Positions 10,284 through 31,935 of a stretch of DNA of 40,810 nt are shown piece after piece. This DNA comes from Prevotella sp. GTDB taxonomy: Bacteria > Bacteroidota > Bacteroidia > Bacteroidales > Bacteroidaceae. The number at the start of each line of letters is the position of its first letter. Positions within the stretch are counted from its first letter, which is position 1. The DNA is taken from contig JAFTGH010000042.1 of NCBI GenBank assembly GCA_017458005.1, forward strand, positions 1 through 40,810. Direction: 5' to 3'. A program made the translations under genes and the position numbers. The notes beneath the pieces were generated by a model. That model was not told the origin of the DNA and did no database searches. It saw only the letters and a program-made list of their open reading frames with translations.

Positions 10284-10303
10284 TCATTATTTATAAATAA
10301 TGA
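10284..10303. promoter_or_regulatory. Perfect 20-bp palindrome upstream of the GH2 start
   Basis: TCATTATTTATAAATAATGA is a perfect palindrome with no spacer, ending 5 bp before the ATG at 10309. It is A+T-only apart from the outer C and G, so it could be an operator or an RNA hairpin masking the start region. The alternative ATG at 10300 lies inside the palindrome, which favours 10309 as the start. Confidence 0.5.
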
Positions 10304-10308
10304 TTCTT

Positions 10309-13119: not shown

Positions 13120-13125
13120 TAAAAG

Positions 13126-13234
13126 GGTAAAAAGGTAGAAAAGTAAAAGCAAGAATGAAAGTCATCAATAATAACTGGGTACGAAGGTGGGTAATAGGTG
13201 TTTTACCTTTTTACCTTTTTACCTTTTTACCTTT
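13126..13234 (+). repeat. 8-bp microsatellite in the GH106 signal sequence, complementary to the leader
   Basis: ACCTTTTT is repeated at exact 8-bp intervals (13205, 13213, 13221, and a partial copy at 13229) inside the signal-peptide codons of the GH106 gene. The intergenic leader holds GGTAAAAAGGTA (13126-13137), a perfect 12-base complement of 13212-13223 and, in other registers, of 13204-13215 and 13220-13231. The longer arms 13121-13148 and 13201-13228 pair imperfectly. The mRNA could fold a hairpin enclosing the start codon at 13155. Change by one 8-bp unit would shift the reading frame. Confidence 0.7.
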
Positions 13235-16232: not shown

Positions 16233-16233
16233 T

Positions 16234-17640
16234 ATGAGACGCATCACATTCTTTTTGATCACGTATTTGTTATCCCTCAGTGCTTCCTTTGCCGAGGTAA
16301 GACTCCCGAGATTCTTTAGCGACAATATGGTGTTGCAGCAACAAACCGAGTGTAACCTTTGGGGAACAGCCGATAAAGGTAAGACGGTGAAGATCACGAC
16401 CTCATGGAATCAGAGGAGTTATCAGGTAAAGGTTGACCAGAACGGACAGTTTGAGGTGAAAGTACAGACTCTTCAGGCGGGTGGACCGTATGAGATTTCC
16501 TTCAACGACGGCAAGTCACTGACCCTGCATAATATCCTTATCGGTGAGGTATGGATCTGCTCCGGACAGTCGAATATGGAGATGCAGATGAAAGGATTCA
16601 AGCAACAACCCGTCGAGGGAACGACAGAGGAACTGCTGCGTTGCAAGGACTCCCAACTGCGACTATTCACTGTCAAGCGCCACGTATCCCTAACTCCAGA
16701 ATATGACGTGACGGGACAATGGAGCGAGGCTAACAGTGCCAGTGTCCGTGATTTCTCCGCCACCGCCTACTATTTCGGTCGTGCCTTACGATTCACCTTG
16801 GATGTACCCGTAGGACTTATCGTCACTGCATGGGGCGGTTCTGCCTGTGAGGCTTGGATGAAGGCAGACTGGTTGCGTGTCTTCCCGAAGGTACAACAAA
16901 CGATCACGGAGGCGGATGTCAAGAAGTTAGAGCAGCGTTGTCCTACCGCTCTCTTTAATGGACAGTTGCATCCCCTCATTGGATATACCATGAAAGGCGC
17001 CATCTGGTATCAGGGAGAGGATAACGTACCCCGCTACGACTACTATGCTCCCCTATTGAAAACGATGGTAGAGGGCTGGCGTAGTGAGTGGAGACAAGGC
17101 GACTTCCCCTTCTATTACTGTCAGATAGCCCCTTACGACTATTCCCTGATAGACTGGAAAGACAGTCAGTACCTGAGGGAACAACAGGCGAAGGCTGAGA
17201 CCATGATTCCCAATGCACGCATGGCAGTGCTGATGGATGCTGGTCTGGAATATGGCATCCACCCCCGCAAGAAGCGTCAGGCTGGTGAGCGACTTGCCTT
17301 GCTCGCCCTTGCCAACACCTATGACGTGAAGGGACTGCCTGAGTTTGCGTCTTATAAGGAGGTGACTTTCCAGAACGATACCGCTGTCGTAGCCTTTGAC
17401 CGCTCTAAGGAATGGGTCTATTTCGAGCATGGCACTACCTCCAACAACTTCGAGGTGGCAGGCTCAGACAAGGTGTTCCACCCCGCCACCAAGGTATGGG
17501 TGTCCCGTAATCGTGTCTATATCACCTGTGATGCCGTCCGACAACCTGTCGCCGTACGCTATGCCTTCAAAGACTGGGCGGATGGGGACTTGATGCACGA
17601 CGGTCTCCCCGTCTCTTCCTTCCGAACTGATAACTGGTAA
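16234..17640 (+). CDS. Secreted SGNH sialate O-acetylesterase-like carbohydrate esterase
   Basis: A 468-residue exported protein (signal peptide MRRITFFLITYLLSLSASFA) of the sialate O-acetylesterase-like SGNH family. The N-terminal sandwich carries VRLPRFFSDNMVLQQ, a signature of the group. The nucleophile Ser lies in ICSGQSNMEMQM (about residue 112), a central IWYQGEDN forms another conserved block, and the late catalytic His is in YGIHPRKKR (about residue 347). Despite the family name, many Bacteroidetes members deacetylate plant glycans, including pectic and xylan side chains, and some belong to carbohydrate esterase families such as CE20. Between two rhamnosidase genes it probably removes acetyl groups that would block the glycosidases. 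The start is 1 bp after the GH106 stop. Confidence 0.85.
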   Translation: MRRITFFLITYLLSLSASFAEVRLPRFFSDNMVLQQQTECNLWGTADKGKTVKITTSWNQRSYQVKVDQNGQFEVKVQTLQAGGPYEISFNDGKSLTLHNILIGEVWICSGQSNMEMQMKGFKQQPVEGTTEELLRCKDSQLRLFTVKRHVSLTPEYDVTGQWSEANSASVRDFSATAYYFGRALRFTLDVPVGLIVTAWGGSACEAWMKADWLRVFPKVQQTITEADVKKLEQRCPTALFNGQLHPLIGYTMKGAIWYQGEDNVPRYDYYAPLLKTMVEGWRSEWRQGDFPFYYCQIAPYDYSLIDWKDSQYLREQQAKAETMIPNARMAVLMDAGLEYGIHPRKKRQAGERLALLALANTYDVKGLPEFASYKEVTFQNDTAVVAFDRSKEWVYFEHGTTSNNFEVAGSDKVFHPATKVWVSRNRVYITCDAVRQPVAVRYAFKDWADGDLMHDGLPVSSFRTDNW

Positions 17641-17645
17641 TCTAT

Positions 17646-20600
17646 ATGAAAAAAGGCATTCTCCTCTCCCTTTTGTTAGCGTTCTCAACGCTTACCAACG
17701 CCTCCGACTATATCCCAAAGGACTATGTGTGGCAGACACCCAGCAGGAACTCCAGTGAGTCAATGCCCTGTGGAGGTCATGACATCGGCATGAACATATG
17801 GGTAGAGAATGGGGATGTGCTTTTCTATATCGCCCAAAGCGGATGGTTTGATGAGAACAACACCCTGTTGAAGGCTGGACGCTGGAGACTGCATCTGGAA
17901 GGGAATCCTTTCAACGATACCCACTTCGAGCAACGGCTATGTCTTGATGAGGGAGCCGTCTATATCAAGGGAAAGGATGTCAATATCCGAATTTGGGTGG
18001 ATGTCTATGAGCCCGTCGTGTTTGTGGAGATGTCATCGCCACATGCAAGACAAGCAACCCTCAGTTATGAGAGTTGGCGATACAAAGACCGCCCTGTGAC
18101 GAAGGCAGAGTGCCAACAGTGTTCCTATAAGTGGGTATTACCTGCTGACTGCAAGACATTCGCAGACGAAATCCACGCAAAAGGAAGTCACTTGACTTTT
18201 ACCCATCAGAATAAAGCAGAGACGGTGTTCGACTTCACGGTCAGTCGTGAGCGTTTGGATGCCATCAAGGACGACCTCTATAACCCCATCGGCAATTTGA
18301 GAATGGGTGGAAAGATGCATGCCGACGGGTTCTCGTACATAGGGACTACGGAGGGCATATACGCCTCGACAGACTATCGCAGTTGGAACTTCCAACGAAA
18401 GAAGATGAAGAAAGGAGTTATCTCTATTCAATTATATACTGGTGAAGCACCTACTTCGTCTGTCAATGCAACGGTATCAAAGGAGAGAAGCGCATCATGG
18501 TGGCATAAATATTGGCAACGGAGTTACATACAGACTGACTGTGGACAGCAGGAGGTGACACAGATAATCCGCAACTACGAACTGATGCGGTATATGCTGG
18601 GATGTAACGCTTATGGTAAGTGGCCTACGAAATTCAATGGCGGTCTCTTCACCTTTGACCCCGTCTATGTCGACTCTACGATGACGTTCACCCCTGACTA
18701 TCGTAAATGGGGTGGCGGTACGATGACGGCACAGAACCAACGTCTGGTCTATTGGCCTATGCTTAAAAGTGGTGATTACGAGGTACTGAAGCCTCAACTC
18801 GACACCTATCTGCGGATGCTACCTAATGCCATAGCATGGACACGCCACCACTGGGGACACGGAGGGGCATGCTTCAGTGAACAGATAGAGAACTTCGGAC
18901 TGCCCAATCCTGCCGAATATGGCAAGCACAAGGATGGTGACGACTGGGGCGTAGAGAAGAACAAATGGCTGGAGTATGAGTGGGACACCGCCTTGGAGTT
19001 TGGAAAGATGTACCTTGATATGTTGCCATGGTACCCTGACTCTACCCTGGAGAAATACCGTGCCCTCGTCACTGAGCCCCTGCGTTTCTTCGTTGAGCAC
19101 TACCCTAACCTCATTATCTATCCCGGATCGGGCTGTGAGACCTATAAGATAGCACGTAATCCCTCCAATACCGTCGCTGCCTTGCAAGCACTGAAAGACT
19201 ATCTCGTCGATGTTGGTGCAGATATTTCCACCATTCCCGACATTCCCCTTCATGTGATTGACGGTGACACCTGTATCGCTCCTGCTATCAGTTGGGAACG
19301 GATACAGAACACGGAGACACCACAACTATACCCTGTATTTCCTTGGCGCATCTACGGTATGGGACGACCACACCTTGATATCGCCCGTAATACCTATCTC
19401 AAAGATCCGCACGCCATCGAGATGCGTAGTACAAAGGGATGGAAACAGGATAATATCTGGGCGGCCTGTCTGGGTATGACCGACGAGGCGACACGTCTGA
19501 ATACGGAGAAGTTGGGTAATGGTCCCTATCGCTTCCCCGCCTTCTGGGACCCTGGTTTCGACTGGGCTCCTGACCATAACAGAGGGGGCGCTGGTATGAT
19601 TGGACTGCAAGAGATGCTGCTACAGGAAGACCTCGATCACAATCCCATCCTCTTCCCTGCATGGTCTCGTGAGTGGAACTGTCGCTTCCGACTCTATCTC
19701 TCTGGACAGCGTTGTGTCGATGCGGAAGTGAAAGACGGCAAGATTACCTATGCCATCGACGGTGTTGATTACTCTGATGATATAGAAGTCCCTGAGAAGG
19801 CTCAGTGGATTGGTGCCATCACAAAAAAGGATGCACGACTACCTGAGGGGCGCAACTACACTGGTGCAAAACTGAAAGAGCCCCTGGTGAAAGAGGCGTG
19901 GAAGAATGTCGACACCCTAAGTCAACGGAGTATCGTGCTACGCAGAGACATTCCCCTCAAAGGGAAAGTATTCAAGGCAACCGTCTCTATCGTCGGACTG
20001 GGGTTCTATGAACTCACCATCAACGGCAAGAAGGTGGGTGACGCATCCTTTGCACCTCTATGGAGTGACTATGACAAAACAGTGTTCTACAATACTTACG
20101 ATGTCACCTCTTACCTCAGCCAAAAGCCAACTGCCGTGCAAGTTCTGTTAGGCAATGGTTTCTACAACGAACAGGGACGACGCTATGCCAAGATGAAGAT
20201 CTCGTTTGGTCCTCCCACCCTGCTGTTCCGCATGCACATTGAGTATCTCGACGGAAAGACAGAGGATATCGTCAGTGACGGACAATGGCAGTGGGCGCTA
20301 TCACCTGTCACCTTTAACAGCATCTATGGCGGTGAGGATTATGACGCTCGCTTGGAGGATGCTACCGACTGGCACCCTGTCGTCATCCAAGAGGCTCCTA
20401 AGGGTGTCCTCCGCCAACAGATGGCAGAGCCTGTCAAAATCATGGAACGCTATTCTGTCAAGGATACTATTAAGAATGACTCCGTCCTAGTACTCGACAT
20501 GGGACAGAACTTGGCGGGATTCCCAGAGATTACCGTTCAAGGACAACGGGGACAATGGCTGAGACTGACTCCTGGCGAGACCTTGACAAAAGACGGACTA

Positions 20601-21986
20601 GTGAATCAGAAGCAAACGGGTCGCCCACATTATTATACTTATATATTAAAAGGTGACAACCAACAGCCAGAAAGATGGCATCCCCGTTTCTCGTATTATG
20701 GTTATCGCTACGCGCAAGTAGAGGGCGACCTTGACGTGTTGAAGAACATCGAGTCATGCTTCGTGTATAACTCTGCACAGAAGACGGGCGACTTTGAATG
20801 CTCCAATGCTCTCTTCAACGATGCCTACCGCCTGATAGACCGTGCCATCCGCTCCAATTGGCAGGCAGTATGGACAGACTGTCCCCATCGTGAGAAACTG
20901 GGTTGGCTGGAACAAGACTGGCTGAACGGAGAGGGACTCCTTGCTAATTACGACTGTCGTGCGATGATAGAGCAGACCATGCAGAACATCGCTGACGCAC
21001 AATACCCCCATGGCGCCTTGCCTGAGATAGCCCCTAACTACGTAATCTTTGAGGGTTCATGGGCACCTCCATTCCTAGAGTCGCCTGAATGGGGAGGAGC
21101 CTTCATCGCCCTACCCTTCCTCTATCAGTCATTCTATGGTGACGATAAACTCATCACTCGCTATCGCCAGCAGATGAAACGCTATGTGGATTATCTGGCG
21201 ACGCAGGACTCTTGCTATATCCTTCGTCAGGGACTGGGCGACTGGTACGACTACGGACCAGGGCGTGCGGGATTTGCACAGAACACTCCCATGCCGCTTG
21301 TCTCGACGGCTCATTACTATTGGTGGAACCACCTGATGGGTGAGGCACGCGCAGACAGTATCAAGGCAGCGTTCATCAAGGAGTTCTACAACCCTACCAC
21401 CCATCAGTATGCCACAGGCAGTCAGTGTGCACAGGCGATTGCCCTTGAGATGGACTTGGTACCAGAAGGTGACCGTGAGGCGGTATTACAACAACTAATT
21501 AACGATATCCATGCCCATGGAGACCGCCTGACGACGGGTGACGTAGGCAACCGCTATCTGTTTAACGCCCTCATCCATAACGGACAGCAGGAACTGCTCT
21601 ACAAGATGCTGAACCACTACGACGTACCTGGCTACGGCTATCAGATCAAACTCGGACATACCACGCTGACGGAGCAATGGAACCCAGAACACGGTGCCTC
21701 CATGAACCATTTCATGATGGGACACCTGAACAACCTGCTCATACCTTATTTCCTAGGCATCTGGCGGGAGGGTGACCGTATCACGATAGCCCCTCATCCC
21801 GTGGGCGACCTTACTTGGTGCCGAGGACGGATGGAAGACGTAAAGGTTGACTGGCATTTTGAAGGCAACACCTTTGTGCTGAAGGTGGACATTCCTGCTG
21901 GTAGGAAAGCAACCATCCAACTCCCCTATAGCGGACTGACGACCGTGGTTGGCGAGGGACAACACATACTGAAAATCAAAAAGTGA
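17646..21986 (+). CDS. DUF5703-GH78 fusion, secreted alpha-L-rhamnosidase
   Basis: A 1446-residue exported protein (signal peptide MKKGILLSLLLAFSTLTNAS) made of two large units. Residues about 25-690 match DUF5703-type proteins: a beta-rich N-domain with SESMPCGGHDIGMNIWVENG, then a helical (alpha/alpha)-barrel region with MTAQNQRLVYWPMLKSGDY reminiscent of GH95/GH63-type barrels. Residues about 715-1446 are GH78, with beta-sandwich domains (YELTINGKKVGDASFAP, VLLGNGFYNEQGRRY), then the (alpha/alpha)6 barrel with DCPHREKLGW (E1083, expected general acid) and the C-terminal WNPEHGASMNHFMMG. GH78 hydrolyses terminal alpha-L-rhamnose. GH78 enzymes usually stand alone, so the extra barrel suggests a second activity on the adjacent sugar. 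The next gene starts 4 bp downstream. Confidence 0.85.
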   Translation: MKKGILLSLLLAFSTLTNASDYIPKDYVWQTPSRNSSESMPCGGHDIGMNIWVENGDVLFYIAQSGWFDENNTLLKAGRWRLHLEGNPFNDTHFEQRLCLDEGAVYIKGKDVNIRIWVDVYEPVVFVEMSSPHARQATLSYESWRYKDRPVTKAECQQCSYKWVLPADCKTFADEIHAKGSHLTFTHQNKAETVFDFTVSRERLDAIKDDLYNPIGNLRMGGKMHADGFSYIGTTEGIYASTDYRSWNFQRKKMKKGVISIQLYTGEAPTSSVNATVSKERSASWWHKYWQRSYIQTDCGQQEVTQIIRNYELMRYMLGCNAYGKWPTKFNGGLFTFDPVYVDSTMTFTPDYRKWGGGTMTAQNQRLVYWPMLKSGDYEVLKPQLDTYLRMLPNAIAWTRHHWGHGGACFSEQIENFGLPNPAEYGKHKDGDDWGVEKNKWLEYEWDTALEFGKMYLDMLPWYPDSTLEKYRALVTEPLRFFVEHYPNLIIYPGSGCETYKIARNPSNTVAALQALKDYLVDVGADISTIPDIPLHVIDGDTCIAPAISWERIQNTETPQLYPVFPWRIYGMGRPHLDIARNTYLKDPHAIEMRSTKGWKQDNIWAACLGMTDEATRLNTEKLGNGPYRFPAFWDPGFDWAPDHNRGGAGMIGLQEMLLQEDLDHNPILFPAWSREWNCRFRLYLSGQRCVDAEVKDGKITYAIDGVDYSDDIEVPEKAQWIGAITKKDARLPEGRNYTGAKLKEPLVKEAWKNVDTLSQRSIVLRRDIPLKGKVFKATVSIVGLGFYELTINGKKVGDASFAPLWSDYDKTVFYNTYDVTSYLSQKPTAVQVLLGNGFYNEQGRRYAKMKISFGPPTLLFRMHIEYLDGKTEDIVSDGQWQWALSPVTFNSIYGGEDYDARLEDATDWHPVVIQEAPKGVLRQQMAEPVKIMERYSVKDTIKNDSVLVLDMGQNLAGFPEITVQGQRGQWLRLTPGETLTKDGLVNQKQTGRPHYYTYILKGDNQQPERWHPRFSYYGYRYAQVEGDLDVLKNIESCFVYNSAQKTGDFECSNALFNDAYRLIDRAIRSNWQAVWTDCPHREKLGWLEQDWLNGEGLLANYDCRAMIEQTMQNIADAQYPHGALPEIAPNYVIFEGSWAPPFLESPEWGGAFIALPFLYQSFYGDDKLITRYRQQMKRYVDYLATQDSCYILRQGLGDWYDYGPGRAGFAQNTPMPLVSTAHYYWWNHLMGEARADSIKAAFIKEFYNPTTHQYATGSQCAQAIALEMDLVPEGDREAVLQQLINDIHAHGDRLTTGDVGNRYLFNALIHNGQQELLYKMLNHYDVPGYGYQIKLGHTTLTEQWNPEHGASMNHFMMGHLNNLLIPYFLGIWREGDRITIAPHPVGDLTWCRGRMEDVKVDWHFEGNTFVLKVDIPAGRKATIQLPYSGLTTVVGEGQHILKIKK

Positions 21987-21990
21987 AGAT

Positions 21991-24819
21991 ATGATGAATA
22001 CTTGGAAACCGAATCTCGAGGAGACAAAGAAACGATACATCAACTGGTGGAACCACAAGGGTATTATCCTGAATATGTGGGAACACTTCCAAGAGGGGGT
22101 AACTCCTCATGCTGACATTCCCATGCCGCCAGCACCCCGTGACTTGAACCAGAAATGGTTCGACCCGCAATGGCGTGCCGACTACCTCGACTGGTATGTG
22201 GCACACTCGTCACTGATGGCTGACATGCTGCCTGTGGCTAACACCCAACTGGGACCAGGTTCCCTTGCCGCCATCCTAGGTGGTGTCTTTGAGGGGGGTG
22301 AGGATACGATCTGGATTCATCCCGACCCTCACTATAAAGATGATATCGTCTTTGACCCCAACCATCCCAACTACCTGCTGCATAAGGAACTGTTAAAGGC
22401 TTGCAAGCAGAAGGCGCAGGGACATTACTATGTGGGCATGCCCGACTTGATGGAAGGACTTGACGTGCTTGCCGCCATCAAGGGTACTGACAAGGTTCTG
22501 CTTGACACCGTGATGCAACCAGAGGTACTGGAGCACCAGATGCAACAGATCAACGATATCTATTTCCAAGTGTTCGACGAACTCTACGACATCATCCGTG
22601 AGGGTGACGAAATGGCTTTCTGCTATTTCTCCTCATGGGCTCCAGGCAAGATGTCGAAACTACAGAGTGACATCTCTACGATGATCAGTGTGGACGACTA
22701 CCGCCGCTTCGTACAGCCGTTTATCCGTGAACAGTGTCAGAAGATTGACTATACCCTCTACCATCTGGATGGTGTGGGTGCCATGCATCATCTGGACGCT
22801 CTCTTGGAGATTGAGGAGTTGAACGCTATCCAGTGGACTCCTGGTGTGGGCGAGCCACAGGGAGGCAGTCCTAAGTGGTACGACCTCTACAAGAAAATCC
22901 TTGCCCACGGCAAGAGTATCATGGCTTGTTGGGTGATACTCGACGAGTTACGTCCGTTGCTCGACAATATTGGTGGCGATGGCGTACATCTGGAGATGGA
23001 CTTCCATAACGAGCGAGAGGTGGAACAGGCAATGCGCATCATCGAGGAATACCAAAGTCATGACGAGGTGGACGAGGAGGTAAAAGAGATTATCCGCCTC
23101 ATCGAATCCCCCACTGAGACCGTCAAGACTGACAGACCCGCCTTCCCCACCAACCGTATCCTCGTCCTCGACGGTGCGATGGGAACGATGATTCAGCAAT
23201 ACCAACTGCGGGAGGAGGACTTCCGTGGGTCACGCTTCGCCCATCATGACTACGACCTGAAAGGCTGTAATGACGTACTGTCGCTGACCTGTCCTTTCAT
23301 CGTCCGGGATATTCACCGCAAATACTTAGAGGCGGGTGCTGATATCATTGAGACCAACACGTTCAATGCCCAGCGCATCTCGATGGGTGACTATGGGATG
23401 CAGGACTATTGTCGGGACATCAACCTTGCCGCTGTGAAGATAGCCCGTGAGATGGCGGAGAGGTATTCGACGCCAGAGAAACCACGCTATGTCGCAGGCA
23501 GCATTGGTCCGACCAGTCGTACGACCTCTGTAGCCACCTCTGGTGTTCCCTTGTCCAAGGAAGAACTACGTACTGCCTACGAGGAACAAATCAAGGCACT
23601 TGCAGAAGGAGGTGTGGATGTACTACTCATCGAGACCATCTTTGATGTGGAGAATGCCCGTATCGCTATTGAGGCGGCAACACGCATCGCCCCCGACCTC
23701 CCCATCATGCTCAGTTTCTCCGTCTCTACTCCTGATGGTCATAACATGCTGGGGCAGAGTATTCTTGATTTCCTCCATGAGGAGAAGAAGGAATTCTTCT
23801 CCATCGGCATCAACTGTCTCTCTGATGTCCAGCAGATGACTCCACTGATCTGTCAACTGTCACAGTTCGGAACGAGGGTAAGCCTCTACCCCAACGCTGG
23901 AATGCCCGATGCCAAAGGACAGTATACCAAGACACCAGAGAGCCTGCTGGGTGATGTATGGCAGTTGTTGGAAAACCATTGCCTGAACATCATCGGAGGA
24001 TGCTGCGGTACGACAGATGCACATATCCGACTGATGGCACAGGCGGTAGAGCCTGTCCCCGGGGTTTTCCTGTCACCCCTACGTCCTGGGGAGAGTCCTA
24101 GTCTCTCTAGTATACCTAGTACACCTAGTAATCCTAGTAAGCCTAGCACTCCCGCTCCCTCGTTCCCCCGTACCTCCGAGCACACCCCCTCCGAACGTCT
24201 CTATCAAGCAATCCTCGATGGTAAGAGCGATGATGCCGCAGCAGCCACAAGGGACGCTATCGCCCAGAACATCGCTCCGCAAGACCTCATCAACGGACAG
24301 ATGATCCGTGCGATGAGCGAGGTGGGCAGACGTTTCCAGGACGGCAAGGCTTTCGTGCCTCAGTTGCTGATGGCAGGACGTGCCATGAAGGCGGCACTCG
24401 AACTGTTGAAGCCGATGATGGCTGGTACGGCAAGTACGTCTTTGGGAAAGGTAGTGATTGGCACTGTGAAAGGCGACCTGCATGATATCGGCAAGAACCT
24501 CGTTGCCTCCATGCTGGAAGGCTGTGGCTTCGAGGTGGTGAATATCGGTATTGATGTCTCTGCCGACACCTTCATCGAGGCTATCAAGGAGAATCAACCC
24601 GATATCCTTTGCATGAGTGCCCTGCTCACCACGACGATGGGATATATGAAGGAGGTCATCGATGCCTTGGAGACTGCTGGCATCCGCGACCAAGTGAAGG
24701 TGATGGTAGGTGGTGCCCCCGTCACCCAAGGCTTCGCTGATGAGATAGGAGCCGACGGTTATAGCGACAACGCCAACTCCGCCGTCACTGTCGCCAAACA
24801 GTTATTAGGGAAATTGTAA
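21991..24819 (+). CDS. UroD-like/homocysteine methyltransferase/cobalamin-binding fusion (putative corrinoid O-demethylase)
   Basis: A 942-residue cytoplasmic protein with three modules. Residues about 1-370 are UroD-superfamily, of the MtaA/MtbA/CmuA methyltransferase kind, carrying YHLDG (H258, D260) where acceptor enzymes have HxC. Residues about 385-690 are a MetH-type homocysteine methyltransferase: VLDGAMGTMIQ, with zinc ligands C609 (INCLS), C671 and C672 (GGCCGT). A Pro/Ser linker encoded by a 9-bp repeat follows (about 700-730). Residues about 735-942 are a helical cap plus B12-binding domain with GDLHDIGKN (H831, the cobalt ligand). A natural reading is methyl transfer from an unknown donor to cobalamin to homocysteine, giving methionine. 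The folate, SAM and reactivation domains of MetH are absent. It lies 4 bp after the GH78 gene, and a MetH-activation-like protein is encoded convergently 7 bp away. Confidence 0.88.
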   Translation: MMNTWKPNLEETKKRYINWWNHKGIILNMWEHFQEGVTPHADIPMPPAPRDLNQKWFDPQWRADYLDWYVAHSSLMADMLPVANTQLGPGSLAAILGGVFEGGEDTIWIHPDPHYKDDIVFDPNHPNYLLHKELLKACKQKAQGHYYVGMPDLMEGLDVLAAIKGTDKVLLDTVMQPEVLEHQMQQINDIYFQVFDELYDIIREGDEMAFCYFSSWAPGKMSKLQSDISTMISVDDYRRFVQPFIREQCQKIDYTLYHLDGVGAMHHLDALLEIEELNAIQWTPGVGEPQGGSPKWYDLYKKILAHGKSIMACWVILDELRPLLDNIGGDGVHLEMDFHNEREVEQAMRIIEEYQSHDEVDEEVKEIIRLIESPTETVKTDRPAFPTNRILVLDGAMGTMIQQYQLREEDFRGSRFAHHDYDLKGCNDVLSLTCPFIVRDIHRKYLEAGADIIETNTFNAQRISMGDYGMQDYCRDINLAAVKIAREMAERYSTPEKPRYVAGSIGPTSRTTSVATSGVPLSKEELRTAYEEQIKALAEGGVDVLLIETIFDVENARIAIEAATRIAPDLPIMLSFSVSTPDGHNMLGQSILDFLHEEKKEFFSIGINCLSDVQQMTPLICQLSQFGTRVSLYPNAGMPDAKGQYTKTPESLLGDVWQLLENHCLNIIGGCCGTTDAHIRLMAQAVEPVPGVFLSPLRPGESPSLSSIPSTPSNPSKPSTPAPSFPRTSEHTPSERLYQAILDGKSDDAAAATRDAIAQNIAPQDLINGQMIRAMSEVGRRFQDGKAFVPQLLMAGRAMKAALELLKPMMAGTASTSLGKVVIGTVKGDLHDIGKNLVASMLEGCGFEVVNIGIDVSADTFIEAIKENQPDILCMSALLTTTMGYMKEVIDALETAGIRDQVKVMVGGAPVTQGFADEIGADGYSDNANSAVTVAKQLLGKL
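24098..24146 (+). repeat. 9-bp in-frame minisatellite encoding the interdomain linker
   Basis: CTAG occurs six times at exact 9-bp spacing (24098, 24107, 24116, 24125, 24134, 24143), the later units reading CCTAGTAnn. The array encodes SIPSTPSNPSKPSTP, a flexible linker between the homocysteine-methyltransferase and cobalamin modules. Because 9 is a multiple of three, copy number changes would alter linker length without a frameshift. Confidence 0.8.
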
Positions 24820-24826
24820 GATTCAA

Positions 24827-25480
24827 TCAGTGTGTCGGGCGTAGTTTCCGCCTGAAACACTGTTTGAAATCACAGAGTCCACAGGTATAGTCCAGATGGC
24901 GGACATCCTTGCCCAGTCCGATAATGCCACTGACTGACTTGATGGGTACCATCAGGGAGGAGTCTGTCAGGCGGACTCCACAGGTATGTCCTTCGAACAA
25001 AGGGAAGAGCAGTTGCTGTTGGGACACATGCCAGCCACAATAGCCAGGGGAGAAACGGTTGGTATGATGCCAACCTAACTTATCGATACTCTCTTGCAGA
25101 CTCACCTCCATCTGGTCGGCGCAATGCTCGGCAATGACAGAGCCGAGGGCATCGGCAATGAATACACGTACCATATCTCCCCCGTCCTTCAGCCGTTGCT
25201 GGTATGCCTCATACGCCGTGCCACTCGTACAGATAAAGAGGGCGTAAGCCTCTGCGCCACGTAACTGACGCGGGATAATCTTACCCGTGTCGAAGGCGGG
25301 CAGGTCTTTCACGACTTGATAGCAGAACTGGGGGCGCAGCCAAGGGCGCACCTCGTCCATGATGGCTAATGCCTCCCGTCGTGTCGCCTCATCAGGTTCC
25401 ACGTCATAATAGCCCATCTGCTCATAGAGATTAGCAGGGGTTATACCTAAAGCATCATAGTCCAGTGTTTTCTCCGTCAT
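24827..25480 (-). CDS. MetH activation-domain-like protein (corrinoid reactivation, putative)
   Basis: A 217-residue cytoplasmic protein resembling the vitamin B12-dependent methionine synthase activation domain. The RFSPGYCGW segment corresponds to the SAM-binding RxxPGY motif, and MVPIKSVSGIIGLG matches the conserved C-terminal core. In MetH this domain methylates inactive cob(II)alamin using SAM and an electron donor. Here it is a separate protein, which fits the fusion at 21991-24819 lacking such a domain. The C-terminus has C200, C203 and C208 (CGLCDFKQC), which could bind a metal or Fe-S cluster and supply electrons; that is speculative. The ATG overlaps the stop of the upstream UroD-family gene (ATGA), so the two are co-translated. 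It converges on the fusion gene with a 7-bp gap. Confidence 0.8.
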   Translation of the reverse strand: MTEKTLDYDALGITPANLYEQMGYYDVEPDEATRREALAIMDEVRPWLRPQFCYQVVKDLPAFDTGKIIPRQLRGAEAYALFICTSGTAYEAYQQRLKDGGDMVRVFIADALGSVIAEHCADQMEVSLQESIDKLGWHHTNRFSPGYCGWHVSQQQLLFPLFEGHTCGVRLTDSSLMVPIKSVSGIIGLGKDVRHLDYTCGLCDFKQCFRRKLRPTH

Positions 25481-26505
25481 GATTGCTCATTCCACTCTTT
25501 GAGTGCCTCAAAGAAGGCATCCACGTTATGCTGTGGCGTATGCGGTGGTGTATCGCAACCACTGGAGAGGACGAAGTTAGGATAATCCCGCATTTTCTCC
25601 AACAAGTCTGTCACGGTCTGGTGCATCTGCGAGGGCATCCCGTCCTTGAAAACACTCACTGGATCGATATTACCCATAGCAAGGGCTGTGGGCGGAACGT
25701 CACGGATGACCTCCTCCATGCGGCACTTATTACCAAAGTGGTATGCCGCCGCACCTGTGCTGACCATCGCGCGAGTACAATGACCCGTATTACCACAGTT
25801 ATGGAGAATCACCAGAAAGTCGTCAGACTGCACCTCATTCACGATATAGCGCACATAGTCAGAGGAGAACGTCTGACAGTCCTTGTCCGACATCAGTCCT
25901 GCGGCAGGCTCCGCCATCATGACACCCCCTACTCCCGTCTGTTTCAAGGCATGACAGTATTTCTTGATGAACATCGTACACTTGCTGAGCAGTTGATGGG
26001 CGGCGTCAGGGTTCTCATAGATAAGCATCATCAACTCCGACATGTCATACAGACGACCTGCAAGAGAGAACGGACCGATACAACCTGCAAAGACAGGACG
26101 GTCGGTGATATGGCGAGCAGCAAGCAGGTTTGCCTTCAGATAGGCAGGAATGCGACCAGCCGAGAGAGAGGGAACCTCCAGACGCTCAATAGCCGCCACA
26201 TCAGCCAAAGGATGTCCTACCACGGCAGGTACCGCGATATCGCTGAAAGCAATCTCCGCACCAAAAGCCTCTGCCTCTGTCGTCAGGTCCATGATGGTAG
26301 CAGCAGCCACCGTAGGATAACGATTGACCAAGGTCTGCACAGCCTCATAATGAACCCGTCCATTGCTGACTGCCTGTCGCACGGTATTGCCATTCATCTC
26401 GATACCTGGGTGAGTCATCACAGGCAATGCCATGACCTCTTTCCGTTGGATGACATCCGCCATCCATTGTCTCATATTCCGCTTCATCTGTTCCGCTTTT
26501 TTCAT
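25477..26505 (-). CDS. UroD-family corrinoid methyltransferase (MtaA/CmuA-like)
   Basis: A UroD-superfamily protein of 342 residues from the ATG at 26505, or 354 from the ATG at 26541. The shorter form is preferred because a TAGTTTTG box at 26515-26522 on this strand would place the RNA start downstream of 26541. It carries the zinc signature of methylcobalamin methyltransferases: H-x-C in LHNCG (H235, C237 from the 26505 start) and a distal Cys in SSGCD (C317). True uroporphyrinogen decarboxylases lack this triad. It could move methyl groups between a donor and the corrinoid module of the neighbouring fusion, acting as a second substrate enzyme. MtaA-type enzymes use coenzyme M, which is not expected here, so the acceptor or donor is unknown. 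Translationally coupled to the activation protein. Confidence 0.85.
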   Translation of the reverse strand: MKKAEQMKRNMRQWMADVIQRKEVMALPVMTHPGIEMNGNTVRQAVSNGRVHYEAVQTLVNRYPTVAAATIMDLTTEAEAFGAEIAFSDIAVPAVVGHPLADVAAIERLEVPSLSAGRIPAYLKANLLAARHITDRPVFAGCIGPFSLAGRLYDMSELMMLIYENPDAAHQLLSKCTMFIKKYCHALKQTGVGGVMMAEPAAGLMSDKDCQTFSSDYVRYIVNEVQSDDFLVILHNCGNTGHCTRAMVSTGAAAYHFGNKCRMEEVIRDVPPTALAMGNIDPVSVFKDGMPSQMHQTVTDLLEKMRDYPNFVLSSGCDTPPHTPQHNVDAFFEALKEWNEQS

Positions 26506-26512
26506 TAAAGAC

Positions 26513-26571
26513 GACAAAACTATTGTTTTGTCACTATCCAAAGTTTAATGTTTAATCTTTAATGTTTAATG
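26513..26571. promoter_or_regulatory. Divergent control region: 8-bp palindrome and TTTAATG heptamers
   Basis: GACAAAAC (26513-26520), TATT and GTTTTGTC (26525-26532) form a perfect palindrome overlapping a minus-strand -7-like box (TAGTTTTG, 26515-26522). Next come four tandem heptamers, TTTAATG, TTTAATC, TTTAATG, TTTAATG (26544-26571). The block lies between the divergent UroD-family and beta-helix genes and probably controls one or both. Confidence 0.55.
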
Positions 26572-26615: not shown

Positions 26616-28112
26616 ATGAAACGAACACTAACCTGTATCCTTTTACTACTTGTCGCCTATGTCTCTCATGCAGGTGAGATTGTCGTCAACCCTGGTGAGA
26701 GTCTGCATGACGCTTTGCGAAAAGCACGGGAATGGCGACGCACCAATGCCCCACAATGTGAGGGAGGTATTATCATCACTTTGAAGGCTGGACGTTACTA
26801 TATGAATGAGCCTTTGTTCCTGCGCCCGGAGGATAGTGGGACGGAAGACTCACCACTCCTCATCCAAGGTGAGCGGGATGCCGTTATCTGTGGTGATGTC
26901 AAGCAAAAGCACACCCAACTCTTCCCAAAGGAAGGCATGGAACGCATGATCGATTTCAATACTGCCGATCGTACCATCACCATTCCCACGCCCCCTAAAG
27001 AGGTGTTGGAAACGAAGAATCTGGAAATGGTAGTGCATCAGCGTTGGGCGATTGCCATTCTCCGAGTCAAAGAGATGAAGGTGCAGGGTGACCAGACGAT
27101 TGTCTCTTTCATGGAACCTGAGAGTCGCTTGGAGTTCGAGCATCCTTGGCCACAACCCGTCATCGGTGGGGAGCGTGGCAATAGTTCCTTCCTCTTGAGA
27201 ACGACAGAACAGCGAGACGGTGTGGAGCAACTGGTCATCGTCGATGGTGCCGACTGTGTTATCTTCGGAACCCTGACCTTTGAGAACACCTGTTGGAACC
27301 GTCCCCTACACAAAGGACACGTCACCCTGCAAGGTGGTTTTCCTCTTATTGATGCCTATAAACTAAAGGAGAGCCCAGGACTGCCCTGGGACGAAGGACT
27401 GGAGAACCAGGCATGGATAGAACGTCCTGTCAGTGCTGTCACCGTCAGGAATTCAAAAAAGGTCAGTATCATCAGTTGCAGGTTCCAATATCTTGCTGCA
27501 ACTGCTATAGACTTCTATGGTGTCAGCGAAAGTTCTATTGTCAACAACATCTTTGAGCACATAGGTGGCACGGCAATCATGGTCGGTTCTTTCGCAGAAA
27601 GTCCTCGTGAAGTTCATCGTCCATATACCGACCTTGCCTCGCAATGCCAGATGCTTAACATATCAGCCAACAGCATCCATGATGCCACCAACGAAGATTG
27701 GGGAGCCGCCGCCATCAGTTGCGGCTATGTACGTGACTGCGTCATTTCCCAAAATACCGTCAGTCATGTCAACTATAGCGGCATCTGCATCGGTTGGGGA
27801 TGGACACCCCTTGACACAGGCATGCGGAATAATCTTATTATTAATAATAAGGTGAGCGACTATGCCCGCCAACTATATGACGCAGGTGGCATCTACACCT
27901 TATCCAACCAACCGAACTCCAGCATCAGGGATAATGAGATCAGTCAGCCCCATCCTGCCCCATACGCTACCAACAACCGTGGTTTCCGCATCTATCTCGA
28001 TGCACGGACAGACGGGTTTACGATAGAGAACAACCAAACAGATGACCGACTGATTCGTCGTGACGAGATTGGCGACAACCACCCTGGTCCTAACCTTATA
28101 TTCAAACAATGA
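26616..28112 (+). CDS. Secreted right-handed parallel beta-helix protein
   Basis: A 498-residue exported protein (signal peptide MKRTLTCILLLLVAYVSHA) with the layout of pectate-lyase-like beta-helices. Near the N-terminus is VVNPGESLHDALRKAREW, then LKAGRYYMNEPLFL. Asn-rich coils follow, such as NNIFEHIGGTAIMVG, NSIHDATN, NTVSHVNYSGICIGWGW and NNLIINNKVSDY. This fold carries polysaccharide lyases and hydrolases such as GH28, GH110, GH120 and GH141. I see no decisive motif to choose among them. GWGW...GGIYTLSNQPNS resembles the central region of beta-helix GH141/GH120-like proteins, but this one is shorter. It is the first gene of a three-gene block; its stop overlaps the GH31 start (ATGA). 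Confidence 0.75.
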   Translation: MKRTLTCILLLLVAYVSHAGEIVVNPGESLHDALRKAREWRRTNAPQCEGGIIITLKAGRYYMNEPLFLRPEDSGTEDSPLLIQGERDAVICGDVKQKHTQLFPKEGMERMIDFNTADRTITIPTPPKEVLETKNLEMVVHQRWAIAILRVKEMKVQGDQTIVSFMEPESRLEFEHPWPQPVIGGERGNSSFLLRTTEQRDGVEQLVIVDGADCVIFGTLTFENTCWNRPLHKGHVTLQGGFPLIDAYKLKESPGLPWDEGLENQAWIERPVSAVTVRNSKKVSIISCRFQYLAATAIDFYGVSESSIVNNIFEHIGGTAIMVGSFAESPREVHRPYTDLASQCQMLNISANSIHDATNEDWGAAAISCGYVRDCVISQNTVSHVNYSGICIGWGWTPLDTGMRNNLIINNKVSDYARQLYDAGGIYTLSNQPNSSIRDNEISQPHPAPYATNNRGFRIYLDARTDGFTIENNQTDDRLIRRDEIGDNHPGPNLIFKQ

Positions 28113-30379
28113 AACAAACTAACTACCATCTCTTTGACTTCATGGACTTCGACCCGACCCTACAGCGGGACGAGAGTCTGTGGAAAGCCTATGCGCCTAC
28201 GAAGATTGTAGAGCGTGACGGGGATATCATCATCACCATCCCTTACCAGAAACAGAGACATCAAGAGGACATGGAGCCTGACACGGATACTCCCCAGCAG
28301 ACCTATGACCTCATCATCCGTGCCTATGAGCCTAACATCATCCGCTTGTTTACGACGATGACGGATGACGAGATGACGGACCATGACGAGATGCTACAGA
28401 TGGCACCAGCCGTGAAGCGCCAGCCCCTCCGTCTCCATGGTTCCGTATGCTGCGACATTGTCGCAGCGAATGACAAGAAAGTCGCCACCATCAATCTGGA
28501 AGCCCCTCGCCTCGACCATTGGAGCGACCTCCTGCCTGCTCCGCAACCAGCACCGTTTATCACTTTCTATCCTGATGGCGACACCTCTAAGCCTGTTGCC
28601 CTCAGCGACGACCATTTCTCACCACCCCGCTATGATGCCCTGCCGCTCGGCTTCTGTTCTGTTAGTTGCTGTGCCACAGCAACCACCACCGAGCGAGCCA
28701 CCATCTCTTTCAGATGTGACGCTAACGAGCACTTTGTGGGTACTGGCGAGCGGTTCCGTAAGATGGACCTCAGCGGACAGACGTTCCAGTTGAAGAACCA
28801 GGACGGACAGGGTGTCAACAACCGTCGCTGCTATAAGAACATCCCGTTCTACCTGTCCAGTCGTATGTATGGTGTCTTTTACCACACCTCCGACTACTGC
28901 AAGTTATCCCTCGCTGACCATAGCGCAAGGAGTGTGCAGTTTATGTGCGACCGTGCTACACTGGATGTCTTCCTCATCGGTGGACAGACCCCTGAGGAGA
29001 TTCTGAGAGGATACCGCATGCTGACGGGCTTTCCTGCCATGCCTCCCCTTTGGAGTTTCGGTATCTGGATGAGCCGTATGACCTATTTCTCCGCTGATGA
29101 GGTGGAGGATATCTGTCACCGCCTGCGAGAGGAGCACTACCCCTGCGATGTCATTCACCTCGATACAGGCTGGTTCCGTACCGACTGGCTCTGCGAATGG
29201 AAGTTCAACCCTGAGCGTTTCCCTGCCCCCAAGGCGTTTATCAGCAGACTGAAGGAGCAAGGTTTCAAGGTGTCCCTCTGGCAACTGCCTTATATCGCCC
29301 AAGGTGCCGAGCAGTTGGAGGAGGCAAAGCAGAACAAATACATCAGTCAACCGACGAGGGAAGAGGACACATCAACAGGTGGAGCCTCCAACTTCTCCGC
29401 CCTCGACTATGCGGGAACGATTGACTTCACTTACCCCAAGGCAACCGACTGGTATAAGTACACCTTACTGAAACCGTTGCTGGACATGGGGGTGAAGTGC
29501 ATCAAGACCGACTTCGGAGAGAATATCCACATGGATCACCAGTACCATGCGTCGACACCAGAGAGACTGAACAACATCTATGCCCTGCTCTACCAGAAAG
29601 CAGCCTATGAGGTGACCCGTGAGGTAACTGGCGACGGTATTATCTGGGCACGTGCCGGATGGGCGGGCTGCCAGCGTTATCCTCTCCATTGGGGCGGTGA
29701 CAGCGAGAGTTCATGGGCTGGTATGGCTGGCTCTCTCAAAGGTGGACTCCACTTAGGACTCTCAGGCTTCGCTTTCTGGAGTCATGACGTACCTGGATTC
29801 CATTCCACGCCCGACTTCATGAACTCCCCCCTTGATGAGCAAGTCTATGTGCGATGGACTCAGTTTGGAGTGTTCACCTCCCATATGCGCTATCATGGCA
29901 CCTGTAAGCGGGAGCCTTGGCATTACCCAGAGATTGCCCCGATTGTCAAGCGTTGGTGGAAACTCCGCTATCGCCTGCTTCCCTATATCGTAGAGCAGTC
30001 TGAACTTGCCTGCCAGAGTGGTCTTCCTCTCGTTCAGGCGTTGCTGTTCCACCATCCTCACGACCGACAGGTATGGCATATCGACGATGAGTACTACTTC
30101 GGCAATGAACTGCTGGTATGTCCCGTGATGAATGCAGACAACCGTCGGGATATCTACCTGCCCGAAGGACCATGGGTCAACTTCCTGACAGGTGAGCGCC
30201 TGGAGGGCGGTCGCTGGTACTATCAGGTGGAGGTGCCCCTCGACCAGATGCCCGTCTTTGTCCGTCCTGACGCTGTCATCAAGATGTACCCGCATGATGT
30301 CGACTCCACCGACGATATGGATCTCTCACAATCTACTGATATCACCATTACACACAACTTTAAAGGCATCACACTATGA
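28109..30379 (+). CDS. Cytoplasmic GH31 alpha-xylosidase-like enzyme
   Basis: A 756-residue GH31 enzyme with no signal peptide, so it should act on imported oligosaccharides. Conserved parts include GTGERFRKMDLSGQ, PPLWSFGIWMSRMTY, CDVIHLDTGWF, nucleophile D468 (CIKTDFGE) and acid/base D531 (HWGGDSESSW). Retention of KTDFGE and the WMSR block is typical of the YicI alpha-xylosidase group more than of alpha-glucosidases (usually WxDMNE), so alpha-xylosidase is the best guess. The start overlaps the beta-helix stop by 4 bp, and its stop overlaps the symporter start by 4 bp, so hydrolysis and import are closely coupled. Confidence 0.85.
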   Translation: MKQTNYHLFDFMDFDPTLQRDESLWKAYAPTKIVERDGDIIITIPYQKQRHQEDMEPDTDTPQQTYDLIIRAYEPNIIRLFTTMTDDEMTDHDEMLQMAPAVKRQPLRLHGSVCCDIVAANDKKVATINLEAPRLDHWSDLLPAPQPAPFITFYPDGDTSKPVALSDDHFSPPRYDALPLGFCSVSCCATATTTERATISFRCDANEHFVGTGERFRKMDLSGQTFQLKNQDGQGVNNRRCYKNIPFYLSSRMYGVFYHTSDYCKLSLADHSARSVQFMCDRATLDVFLIGGQTPEEILRGYRMLTGFPAMPPLWSFGIWMSRMTYFSADEVEDICHRLREEHYPCDVIHLDTGWFRTDWLCEWKFNPERFPAPKAFISRLKEQGFKVSLWQLPYIAQGAEQLEEAKQNKYISQPTREEDTSTGGASNFSALDYAGTIDFTYPKATDWYKYTLLKPLLDMGVKCIKTDFGENIHMDHQYHASTPERLNNIYALLYQKAAYEVTREVTGDGIIWARAGWAGCQRYPLHWGGDSESSWAGMAGSLKGGLHLGLSGFAFWSHDVPGFHSTPDFMNSPLDEQVYVRWTQFGVFTSHMRYHGTCKREPWHYPEIAPIVKRWWKLRYRLLPYIVEQSELACQSGLPLVQALLFHHPHDRQVWHIDDEYYFGNELLVCPVMNADNRRDIYLPEGPWVNFLTGERLEGGRWYYQVEVPLDQMPVFVRPDAVIKMYPHDVDSTDDMDLSQSTDITITHNFKGITL

Positions 30380-31935
30380 ATACACATTACATGCAGTCTC
30401 TTGACTGGATGATCCTTGCGATCTATTTCATCATCCTACTCGCCATCGGCGTATGGGCAAGTACCAAACGAAAGAAAGAGGGTTCCCTGTTCCTCGCTGA
30501 GCACTCCCTGCGCTGGCACCATATCGGTTTCTCCATGTGGGGAACGAATGTCGGTCCTTCCATGCTGATAGCATCAGCCTCAGCGGGATTCACGACAGGT
30601 ATCGTCTCCGGCAACTATGCGTGGTATGCCTTTGTGTTCATCGCCCTGCTTGCCTTTGTCTTTGCTCCCCGTTACTTAGGAGCAAAGGTGCATACGCTGC
30701 CTGAGTTCATGGGATTGCGCTTCGGACAGTCTACGAGGAATATCCTCGCTTGGTATACCATTGCCACCATCATCATATCCTGGCTTGCCCTGACACTCTT
30801 TGCCGGAGGCATCCTAATCCGACAGGTATTCGATATCCCGATGTGGATGTCGGCATTGGTACTGCTGATCATCTCCGCCTTCTTCACGATGCTGGGAGGA
30901 CTGAAGGCTGTCGCCTATACCAATGTGTATCAGATGATCCTGCTCATCGTTGTATCACTGATCTTGGTGATTGTCGGTCTTGACCGTGTTGGAGGTGTCT
31001 CTGCCTTGGTCGCCAAGGTTCCTGCCGACTATTGGGTGATGTTCAAGCCCAACACCGACGAGGCATTCCCTTGGTTACCTATCATCCTCGGCTACCCAGT
31101 GATGGGCATCTGGTTCTGGTGTACTGACCAGAGTATGGTGCAACCTGTCCTTGCCGCTAAGGATTTACGGGAGGGACAACTGGGTACTAACTTCACGGGA
31201 TGGTTGAAGATTCTGGATGTCGCCCTCTATATCCTTCCAGGTATTATCTGCTTTGCCCTCTTCCCCACATTGGAGAATCCTGACGAGGCATACCTGACGA
31301 TGGTGGAGAACCTGTTTCCTGTGGGAATGGTCGGCTTGGTGTTTGCCGTGCTGACAGCATGTCTGGTATCCACGATAGGTTCTGCGCTCAATGCGTTAAG
31401 CACTGTATTTACCATGGATGTCTACGTTAAGAACTTCAAACCTGGTGCTCCACAATGGGAGATTAACATGGTAGGACGATTAGTCACTCTTATCGGTGCC
31501 GCCCTTGCCATCGTCCTCACCATTGCCATTGATGCCATCAAAGGACTCAATCTCTTCAATGTGTTCCAGAGTGTCCTGGGCTTCATCGCTCCCCCGATGG
31601 CGGCAGTTTTCGTCCTTGGTATTTTCTGGAAACGCACCACAACACGTGCTGCCAACTTTGCCTTGACCGTTGGCACCATTTTCTGCCTGACCGTCGGTAT
31701 CCTCTATCTATGGCCGCCCGAATGGCTTCAGTTCCCTTGGCCGCACTTCATGCTGTTGTCGTTCGAGTTGTTTGTTATCCTTGTTGCCTCGATGGTGGTA
31801 ATCAGTCTGACGGACAAAGACAAGACCGTCTACGAAATACCGGCTCCCGTACATGAGAACCAGTCGAGACTTGCCATAGGGCTATGGATAGCCTTGGCAG
31901 TGGTAATGATAGGACTATATATCTATTTCAATTAA
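30376..31935 (+). CDS. Sodium:solute symporter (SSS/SGLT type)
   Basis: A 519-residue inner-membrane protein with about 14 hydrophobic helices and SSS-family motifs (WASTKRKKEGSLFLAEHS, GLKAVAYTNVYQMI, TACLVSTIGSALNALSTVF). The motifs resemble sugar-transporting SGLT-like members. It probably imports the oligosaccharide cut by the GH31 encoded 4 bp upstream. It differs clearly from the other symporter (7756-9276), so two cargoes are likely. The last 35 codons (from 31831) lie in a 117-bp segment that occurs again at 33683-33799. The coding copy is intact and ends in a hydrophobic helix followed by IYFN. Confidence 0.9.
   Translation: MNTHYMQSLDWMILAIYFIILLAIGVWASTKRKKEGSLFLAEHSLRWHHIGFSMWGTNVGPSMLIASASAGFTTGIVSGNYAWYAFVFIALLAFVFAPRYLGAKVHTLPEFMGLRFGQSTRNILAWYTIATIIISWLALTLFAGGILIRQVFDIPMWMSALVLLIISAFFTMLGGLKAVAYTNVYQMILLIVVSLILVIVGLDRVGGVSALVAKVPADYWVMFKPNTDEAFPWLPIILGYPVMGIWFWCTDQSMVQPVLAAKDLREGQLGTNFTGWLKILDVALYILPGIICFALFPTLENPDEAYLTMVENLFPVGMVGLVFAVLTACLVSTIGSALNALSTVFTMDVYVKNFKPGAPQWEINMVGRLVTLIGAALAIVLTIAIDAIKGLNLFNVFQSVLGFIAPPMAAVFVLGIFWKRTTTRAANFALTVGTIFCLTVGILYLWPPEWLQFPWPHFMLLSFELFVILVASMVVISLTDKDKTVYEIPAPVHENQSRLAIGLWIALAVVMIGLYIYFN

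What the first reader, a model, noticed from the sequence alone, without database searches (positions are those of the whole stretch)
21991..24819. One-chain corrinoid methyl-transfer machine: UroD-like, homocysteine methyltransferase and B12 module
The sequence shows three complete modules in a 942-residue protein: a UroD-superfamily methyltransferase, a MetH-type homocysteine methyltransferase with its Cys/CysCys zinc set (C609, C671, C672), and a B12 domain with GDLHDIGKN. Known corrinoid O-demethylases and methanol/methylamine systems split substrate enzyme, corrinoid protein and acceptor enzyme into separate polypeptides. Here the folate and activation domains of MetH are absent and a UroD-like unit takes the donor side. 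The inferred activity is donor-O-CH3 plus homocysteine giving donor-OH plus methionine, without tetrahydrofolate.
Basis: partly seen in the sequence, partly recalled or inferred. Interest (0 to 1): 0.82.

Follow-up and report, generated by a model that had tools for sequence, protein, structure and literature searches.

The report
Corrinoid demethylase for pectin methyl sugars
A Prevotella-like gut bacterium carries one protein that looks able to pull a methyl group off a methylated plant sugar and hand it, through vitamin B12, directly to homocysteine to make methionine; if right, it would account for a methylated scrap of pectin that a well-studied gut bacterium is reported to leave uneaten.

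The parts
21991..24819 (+). NT-HMT-B12 chain, 942 aa: proposed sugar O-demethylase / corrinoid / homocysteine methyltransferase
   Evidence: 73 full three-domain relatives among 80 loci
21991..23058 (+). NT domain (residues 1-356), UroD-superfamily barrel, proposed methyl-donor (MT1) site; YHLDG with H258 and D260 invariant in 77 of 77 rows
23152..24054 (+). homocysteine S-methyltransferase domain (residues 388-688), MetH-related
23815..23817 (+). codon of Zn ligand C609
   Evidence: C in 74 of 74
24001..24006 (+). codons of Zn ligands C671, C672
   Evidence: C in 74 of 74
24193..24411 (+). B12-binding_2 (cap) domain, residues 735-807
24445..24786 (+). B12-binding domain, residues 819-932; closest to MtgC/MtbC corrinoid proteins
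24472..24498 (+). GDLHDIGKN cobalamin-binding motif (residues 828-836)
24827..25480 (-). MSact: stand-alone MetH-type reactivation domain, with the RxxxGY AdoMet motif (motif label recalled)
   Evidence: match at E<1e-30 in 15 of 16 NT+ and 0 of 43 NT- same-genus genomes
25477..26541 (-). UROD2: MtaA-like Zn methyltransferase (H247, C249, C329 in 54 of 54 rows), proposed further methyl acceptor enzyme; true start may be residue 19 (about 26487), where 37 of 53 relatives begin
26616..28112 (+). GH141-A, signal peptide read by eye; paralogue of BT1002
28109..30379 (+). GH31, no signal peptide by eye, YicI/alpha-xylosidase-like
30376..31935 (+). sodium:solute symporter, proposed importer
10300..21986 (+). 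genes just upstream, same strand and closely spaced: GH2 (10300), GH106 (13155), SASA esterase (16234), DUF5703-GH78 (17646)

Best explanation
The locus imports and strips a methylated sugar from the pectin rhamnogalacturonan II (RG-II). A secreted GH141 (BT1002-like, elsewhere in the genome) releases 2-O-methyl-D-xylose-alpha-1,3-L-fucose; the SSF symporter brings the disaccharide (or the monosaccharide) into the cytoplasm; the cytoplasmic GH31 splits it; the NT domain transfers the 2-O-methyl group to the Co(I) corrinoid of the same chain, leaving D-xylose; the HMT domain moves the methyl from Co(III) to Zn-bound homocysteine, giving methionine. No folate is used. When the cobalt oxidises to Co(II), the neighbouring MSact protein re-methylates it with AdoMet, as the MetH activation domain does. 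UROD2 is a second, Zn-dependent outlet for the methyl group, and the likely acceptor in forms without an HMT. Shown: chain, domains, fold, conserved residues, gene partners, co-occurrence. Inferred: substrate, direction of methyl flow, the role of every protein. No step is biochemically shown.
For: Domains and Zn/B12 residues. NT has the UroD/MtaA fold. Split, NT-B12 and NT-HMT-B12 forms in similar loci, with a free HMT in L145. Same-genus co-occurrence: GH31 16/16 v 1/43, GH141-A 16/16 v 1/43, MSact 15/16 v 0/43, UROD2 11/16 v 0/43, a second GH141 (34-41% identical to GH141-A) 15/16 v 4/43. The own genome's second GH141 matches BT1002 at 788.7 bits, in an RG-II-like locus. BT1002 releases MeXyl-Fuc (PMC10154630, passages); B. 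thetaiotaomicron cleaves 21 of 22 RG-II linkages but not that one, and accumulates the disaccharide when grown on an RG-II-derived oligosaccharide (PMC7939467, passages). By eye GH141-A has a signal peptide and GH31 none. GH31's best NCBIfam model is alpha-xylosidase.
Against: No activity is known for any of these proteins. GH31 is below the alpha-xylosidase cut-off (483.3 v 606 bits) and reads HLDTGWF where YicI reads HFDCFWM. 5f7c, its close solved relative (1209.7 bits), is by my recall from B. thetaiotaomicron, which is reported not to cleave MeXyl-Fuc. 11 of 43 long-flanked loci show no GH31 nearby. GH141-A is a paralogue (305.5 bits to BT1002), so its role is open. UROD2 persists in most three-domain genomes, so the HMT is not simply its replacement; G832 has NT without HMT in its frame and no UROD2. 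G049 and G832 have no MSact match, G562 only one inside a MetH frame. No corrinoid gene was seen within the 20 kb of L145 or L147. Removing methyl from an alkyl ether is harder than from an aryl ether (recalled). Co-occurrence counts ignore relatedness of the genomes.
Confidence: 0.55

Rival explanations
1. Same machine, different methyl sugar: the substrate is 2-O-methyl-L-fucose (RG-II chain B) or another O-methyl sugar released by the locus, not 2-O-methyl-xylose.
For: A figure legend on spent media of a B. thetaiotaomicron mutant also labels 2-O-Me-Fuc (PMC7939467); the window has rhamnosidases, an esterase and a GH141 paralogue of unknown specificity; some loci lack a nearby GH31.
Against: The tightest genetic partner is a GH31, a family acting on alpha-D-glycosides (recalled), 16/16 v 1/43.
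Confidence: 0.22
2. UROD2 is the main physiological acceptor and the HMT domain is a side outlet, or UROD2 is a second donor enzyme feeding the same corrinoid.
For: UROD2 matches at 50% identity or more in 17 of 19 further NT+ genomes, three-domain ones included; H247/C249/C329 invariant in 54 of 54; MtaA-like.
Against: UROD2 was not found in five genomes whose chain carries HMT (G009, G027, G036, G049; G562; 79-99% complete); the HMT Zn site is kept in 74 of 74 although the domain evolves fast.
Confidence: 0.13
3. The chain is an alternative methionine synthase that draws methyl from another donor (methanol, a methyl thiol or a methyl ester product), the sugar locus being incidental.
For: HMT and B12 modules are those of methionine synthesis; G004 (99% complete) shows no HMT match but the fused chain.
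Against: The own genome and 20 of 24 NT+ genomes searched have a separate MetH-length frame with an HMT match; the locus partners are carbohydrate enzymes across genera; among 18 neighbour proteins scanned in the window none but MSact is a methionine-pathway type.
Confidence: 0.08
4. NT is not a methyltransferase; it keeps a UroD barrel for another reaction and the fusion only co-locates enzymes.
For: Direct sequence similarity to UroD methyltransferases is too weak to score; the UroD superfamily also holds decarboxylases.
Against: Fusion to, or clustering with, a corrinoid domain and a reactivation protein in most architectures (no corrinoid gene seen in L145 or L147).
Confidence: 0.06

Closest known systems
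Corrinoid O-demethylases of acetogens and methanogens (MtvABC, OdmABCD, MtoABCD) and Cdm
   Same: UroD-superfamily MT1, corrinoid protein, second methyltransferase, reactivating protein (passages of PMC13222342 and PMC8630106)
   Different: Those described in the passages act on aryl methyl ethers or haloalkanes and pass methyl to tetrahydrofolate (bacteria) or CoM (archaea); here the acceptor domain is a homocysteine methyltransferase, the parts are fused, the reactivation protein is of MetH type, and the locus is a pectin-type locus
CmuA (chloromethane)
   Same: one protein acts as MTI and corrinoid protein (PMC13222342 passage); resembles the NT-B12 two-domain form
   Different: haloalkane substrate, separate CmuB acceptor enzyme, no HMT module (last point recalled)
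MetH, cobalamin-dependent methionine synthase
   Same: HMT module (fused HMTs form one clade beside MetH HMTs) and a B12 module
   Different: no pterin-binding domain; donor domain is UroD-like and N-terminal; corrinoid module closer to MtgC/MtbC; activation domain is a separate neighbour gene
BT1002-type GH141 RG-II pathway of Bacteroides thetaiotaomicron
   Same: a BT1002-like GH141 in an RG-II-like locus exists in this genome
   Different: B. thetaiotaomicron is reported to leave 2-O-Me-Xyl-alpha-1,3-Fuc uncleaved
MtaA/MtbA methylcobamide:CoM methyltransferases
   Same: UROD2 has an invariant H-x-C ... C set and scores best against 4ay7 and NCBIfam MtaA-type models
   Different: below every curated cut-off; CoM is not expected in these bacteria (recalled), thiol acceptor unknown
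type 1 mlp gene clusters (SCMT homologues; PMC10418091, abstract and passages)
   Same: UroD-superfamily corrinoid methyltransferases widespread in anaerobes
   Different: proposed there for methyl-sulfur or methyl-selenide; relation to UROD2 not tested here

Membership tests
UroD superfamily (NT domain) | UroD-type (beta/alpha)8 fold | tested here: met
UroD superfamily (NT domain) | profile-level sequence relation | tested here: met
   through intermediates: A1-A6 prob 94.4, A6-A7 prob 96.9, A5-A7 prob 94.9; direct A1-A3 gave nothing
Pfam URO-D PF01208 (NT domain) | gathering score | tested here: not met
   no match
corrinoid O-demethylase systems | DxHxxG corrinoid protein | tested here: met
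corrinoid O-demethylase systems | second methyltransferase to tetrahydrofolate/pterin in the locus | tested here: not met
   no pterin-binding domain in the chain or in the 18 neighbour proteins scanned; HMT and MtaA-like proteins instead
corrinoid O-demethylase systems | ATP-dependent Fe-S activating enzyme | tested here: inconclusive
   none among the window proteins scanned; a MetH-type activation protein instead; the rest of the genome was not searched for it
corrinoid O-demethylase systems | removes O-methyl groups | not testable with these tools
   needs an assay
MetH | Hcy module with three Zn cysteines | tested here: met
MetH | pterin-binding domain between HMT and B12 modules | tested here: not met
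   metH model 490.6 v cut-off 1010.85 bits
MetH | C-terminal activation domain in the same chain | tested here: not met
   separate gene at 24827-25480
MtaA/CmuA methyltransferase (UROD2) | H-x-C ... C Zn ligands | tested here: met
   54 of 54 rows
MtaA/CmuA methyltransferase (UROD2) | TIGR01463 cut-off | tested here: not met
   130.7 v 235.4 bits
alpha-xylosidase YicI family (GH31) | PRK10658 cut-off | tested here: not met
   483.3 v 606 bits; KTDFGE and HWGGD segments shared with YicI

The most novel reading that the evidence does not exclude
First anaerobic, cobalamin-dependent O-demethylation of a sugar methyl ether: a single chain turns a pectin methyl sugar plus homocysteine into free sugar plus methionine, so a dietary polysaccharide directly feeds the cell's methyl-group metabolism without folate, and the locus deals with the one RG-II linkage reported as uncleaved by B. 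thetaiotaomicron.
Probability: 0.45. Interest if true: 0.9.

Novelty: new variant of a known kind. Interest (0 to 1): 0.8.

Why it matters
RG-II is a plant cell-wall pectin eaten by people and ruminants (recalled); B. thetaiotaomicron is reported to leave 2-O-methyl-xylose-fucose behind. A locus that deals with it would name the missing enzymes and give a cross-feeding story testable in Phocaeicola vulgatus, which has the two-domain form (L104). It would also widen corrinoid O-demethylation from aryl ethers to alkyl ethers of sugars and from folate to homocysteine as acceptor. The graded series split, two-domain, three-domain is a natural experiment in fusing a multi-protein B12 pathway.

Tried and rejected
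Idea that the HMT module was acquired several times (HMT identity to the window falls to 43.9% while NT stays at 86.8% or more, 73 rows): not supported; fused HMTs form one clade (98/82; 34 of about 90 fused rows hand-picked for diversity, plus 19 MetH and 1 free HMT).

Idea that HMT and UROD2 exclude each other: not borne out; UROD2 is found in most three-domain genomes.

Idea that the window GH141 is the BT1002 orthologue: rejected; a better match is at G000:C29 (788.7 v 305.5 bits). Only the own genome's second GH141 was compared with BT1002; those of the other genomes were sorted by their 34-41% identity to GH141-A.

Idea that MSact belongs to the truncated MetH of this genome: not favoured; it tracks NT (15/16 v 0/43 at E<1e-30), also in genomes with a MetH frame of 1147-1260 aa. 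Weak matches in NT- genomes (G001, G008, G021) lie in longer frames or score above E 1e-7.

Direct profile comparison NT v UROD2, profiles v PDB and a viral-contig scan gave nothing useful. Families not appearing are no evidence, as that list holds only Foldseek's matches. A passage on BT3299 (PMC3878776) did not help to place 5f7c. Literature: searches showed no description of this fusion or of corrinoid demethylation of sugars in their listings (open-licence PMC only, listings and passages seen; one search was a search for protein names; the main RG-II paper, 10.1038/nature21725, is not held).

A structure job for the full 942-aa chain (A4) was never accepted and not tried again late because too few calls were left.

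Full report
1. What is there. The 942-aa frame at 21991-24819 is intact. Pfam finds a homocysteine S-methyltransferase (391-686) and the two B12-binding domains (735-807, 819-932). The B12 part matches MtgC-, MtbC- and MtaC-type corrinoid models of NCBIfam (219 to 134 bits, all below their cut-offs), while the best stretch of the metH match is the HMT part. C609, C671 and C672 are cysteine in 74 of 74 three-domain rows (73 relatives and the window), and the GDLHDIGKN motif is kept, although the HMT is less conserved (mean identity to the window 69.8%) than NT (91.4%) and B12 (87.3%).

3. Neighbours. Directly beside the chain, on the other strand, lie a stand-alone MetH activation domain (24827-25480) and a URO-D protein, UROD2 (25477-26541). 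UROD2 scores best against methylcobamide:CoM methyltransferases but below their cut-offs, and its H247/C249/C329 are invariant in 54 of 54 rows. MSact has RFSPGY, the RxxxGY AdoMet motif of MetH (label recalled; R in 55 of 56 rows, G and Y in 56 of 56). Then follow GH141-A, GH31 and a sodium symporter. Upstream on the same strand are GH2, GH106, a SASA esterase and DUF5703-GH78, the last ending 4 bases before the chain.

4. Relatives. A genome-contig scan found 313 stretches encoding a relative and kept the best 80, mostly titled Prevotella or Prevotellaceae, many from ruminants, with Phocaeicola vulgatus, P. sartorii, Bacteroides sp. GM023, Marseilla massiliensis and Prevotella pectinovora. 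73 of 80 have the full three-domain chain, 2 more (L051, L088) show NT-HMT up to a contig end, and 5 (L103, L104, L110, L111, L117) are NT-B12 without HMT; these 5 all have GH31, GH141, symporter, MSact and UROD2 in the locus. In other genomes NT is a separate gene: of the loci I fetched, L038, L039, L040, L145, L146, L147 and L148 (7; distant homologues L151-L153 not counted). A separate corrinoid protein is seen in 3 of the 7 (L038, L039, L146), MSact in 4 (L038, L039, L145, L146), UROD2 in 3 (L038, L039, L147), and a free homocysteine methyltransferase in 1 (L145; Pfam 245.8 bits); L040 and L148 are short contigs. Three-domain chains also occur in another family (L144, L149, L150). This is a split-to-fused series. 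The domain is not widespread: 2 of 395 genomes across the phylum, the own one and a weak one; 15 of 393 in the order, own included, some weak; 14 of 301 in the family, own included.

5. Co-occurrence. Among 59 same-genus genomes (those drawn, own genome not counted) 16 have NT. GH31 (E up to 1e-150): 16/16 v 1/43; GH141-A (53% identity or more): 16/16 v 1/43; MSact (E<1e-30): 15/16 v 0/43, missing in G049; UROD2 (E<1e-100): 11/16 v 0/43; second GH141 (34-41% identical): 15/16 v 4/43 (Fisher p 1.5e-13, 1.5e-13, 4e-13, 1.6e-8, 1.4e-9; relatedness not corrected). Locally, of 43 loci with long flanks, 32 have GH31, 30 GH141, 32 the symporter, 30 MSact, 31 UROD2. In 19 further NT+ genomes UROD2 at 50% identity or more is in 17, not in G562 or G832, and MSact (P. 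vulgatus query, E 3e-28 or better) in 17, not in G832 and only inside a MetH-length frame in G562.

6. Substrate. The own genome has a second GH141 that is a far better match to BT1002 (788.7 bits), in a locus with SusD, DUF6298, DUF3826, GH127 and GH78-type genes. The literature passages seen say that BT1002 releases 2-O-methyl-D-xylose-alpha-1,3-L-fucose from RG-II (PMC10154630), that B. thetaiotaomicron cleaves 21 of 22 RG-II linkages except that one, and that it accumulates the disaccharide when grown on an RG-II-derived oligosaccharide (PMC7939467). GH31, with no signal peptide by eye, is best matched by YicI after one close PDB chain, 5f7c, and by the alpha-xylosidase model. The simplest order is secreted GH141, symporter, cytoplasmic GH31, then demethylation. 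A 2-O-methyl-xylose cannot enter the usual xylose isomerase route until demethylated (recalled), which gives a reason for the enzyme. The substrate remains an inference; 2-O-methyl-fucose is the main rival.

7. Acceptor. A separate MetH-length frame with an HMT match is present in the own genome and in 20 of 24 NT+ genomes searched; not seen in G004 (99% complete, only the fused chain), G057 (65% complete), G559 (weak, short matches) and G065 (no match). So the chain is not simply the methionine synthase. UROD2 remains unexplained beside it.

8. Known or new. Described bacterial systems pass the methyl to tetrahydrofolate by way of MT1, corrinoid protein and MT2 (PMC8630106 and PMC13222342, passages). 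CmuA acts as MTI and corrinoid protein in one, and a figure legend of PMC8630106 mentions other corrinoid proteins fused with their methyltransferase. I found no report of a fusion with an HMT acceptor or of corrinoid demethylation of sugars in the listings of nine searches of open-licence papers. I rate it a new variant of corrinoid O-demethylases, with architecture and association shown and activity unshown.

Noticed in passing
24827-25480 (-), MSact: Four cysteines (C148 just after the RxxxGY motif, C200, C203, C208) are invariant in 56 of 56 rows; they could hold a metal or Fe-S cluster for reducing the cobalt.
   Followed up: partly
35374-37607 and L188:15935-18240: Two similar pairs of an EcoRI-type adenine methylase and a GmrSD_N/HNH nuclease gene, one in the window and one beside the RG-II-like locus of the same genome.
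   Followed up: no
L041:6779-9523 (-): The own MetH (914 aa) seems to end after the B12 domain, judged by length and by eye; several other NT+ genomes have 912-936-aa frames, others 1147-1260 aa.
   Followed up: partly
L155:8766-10575 and L157:8029-14299: L155: a UroD-like protein next to a free corrinoid protein and a GH2. L157: UROD2-like genes, a corrinoid protein, MSact and a GH31 together. Perhaps further sugar-locus methyltransferase systems with other substrates.
   Followed up: no
L145:10130-11179, L146:8110-9174: A Gfo/Idh/MocA oxidoreductase sits between NT and the symporter in two split loci.
   Followed up: no
L103: A contig titled Paenibacillus carries a Bacteroidales-like locus with 85% identical NT; perhaps a mislabelled MAG.
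   Followed up: no
MT840006.1:3627-4685: A 4851-base record called Bacteriophage sp. from human faeces encodes an 87.6% identical NT; probably bacterial DNA.
   Followed up: no
7756-10199 (-): A symporter plus DHDPS-family aldolase pair; relatives of both lie in the NT loci L075, L076, L090, L096, L103 and L119, perhaps for another RG-II sugar acid.
   Followed up: no
23152-24054, HMT domain: The HMT module diverges faster than the NT and B12 modules of the same chain, although its Zn site is fixed.
   Followed up: partly
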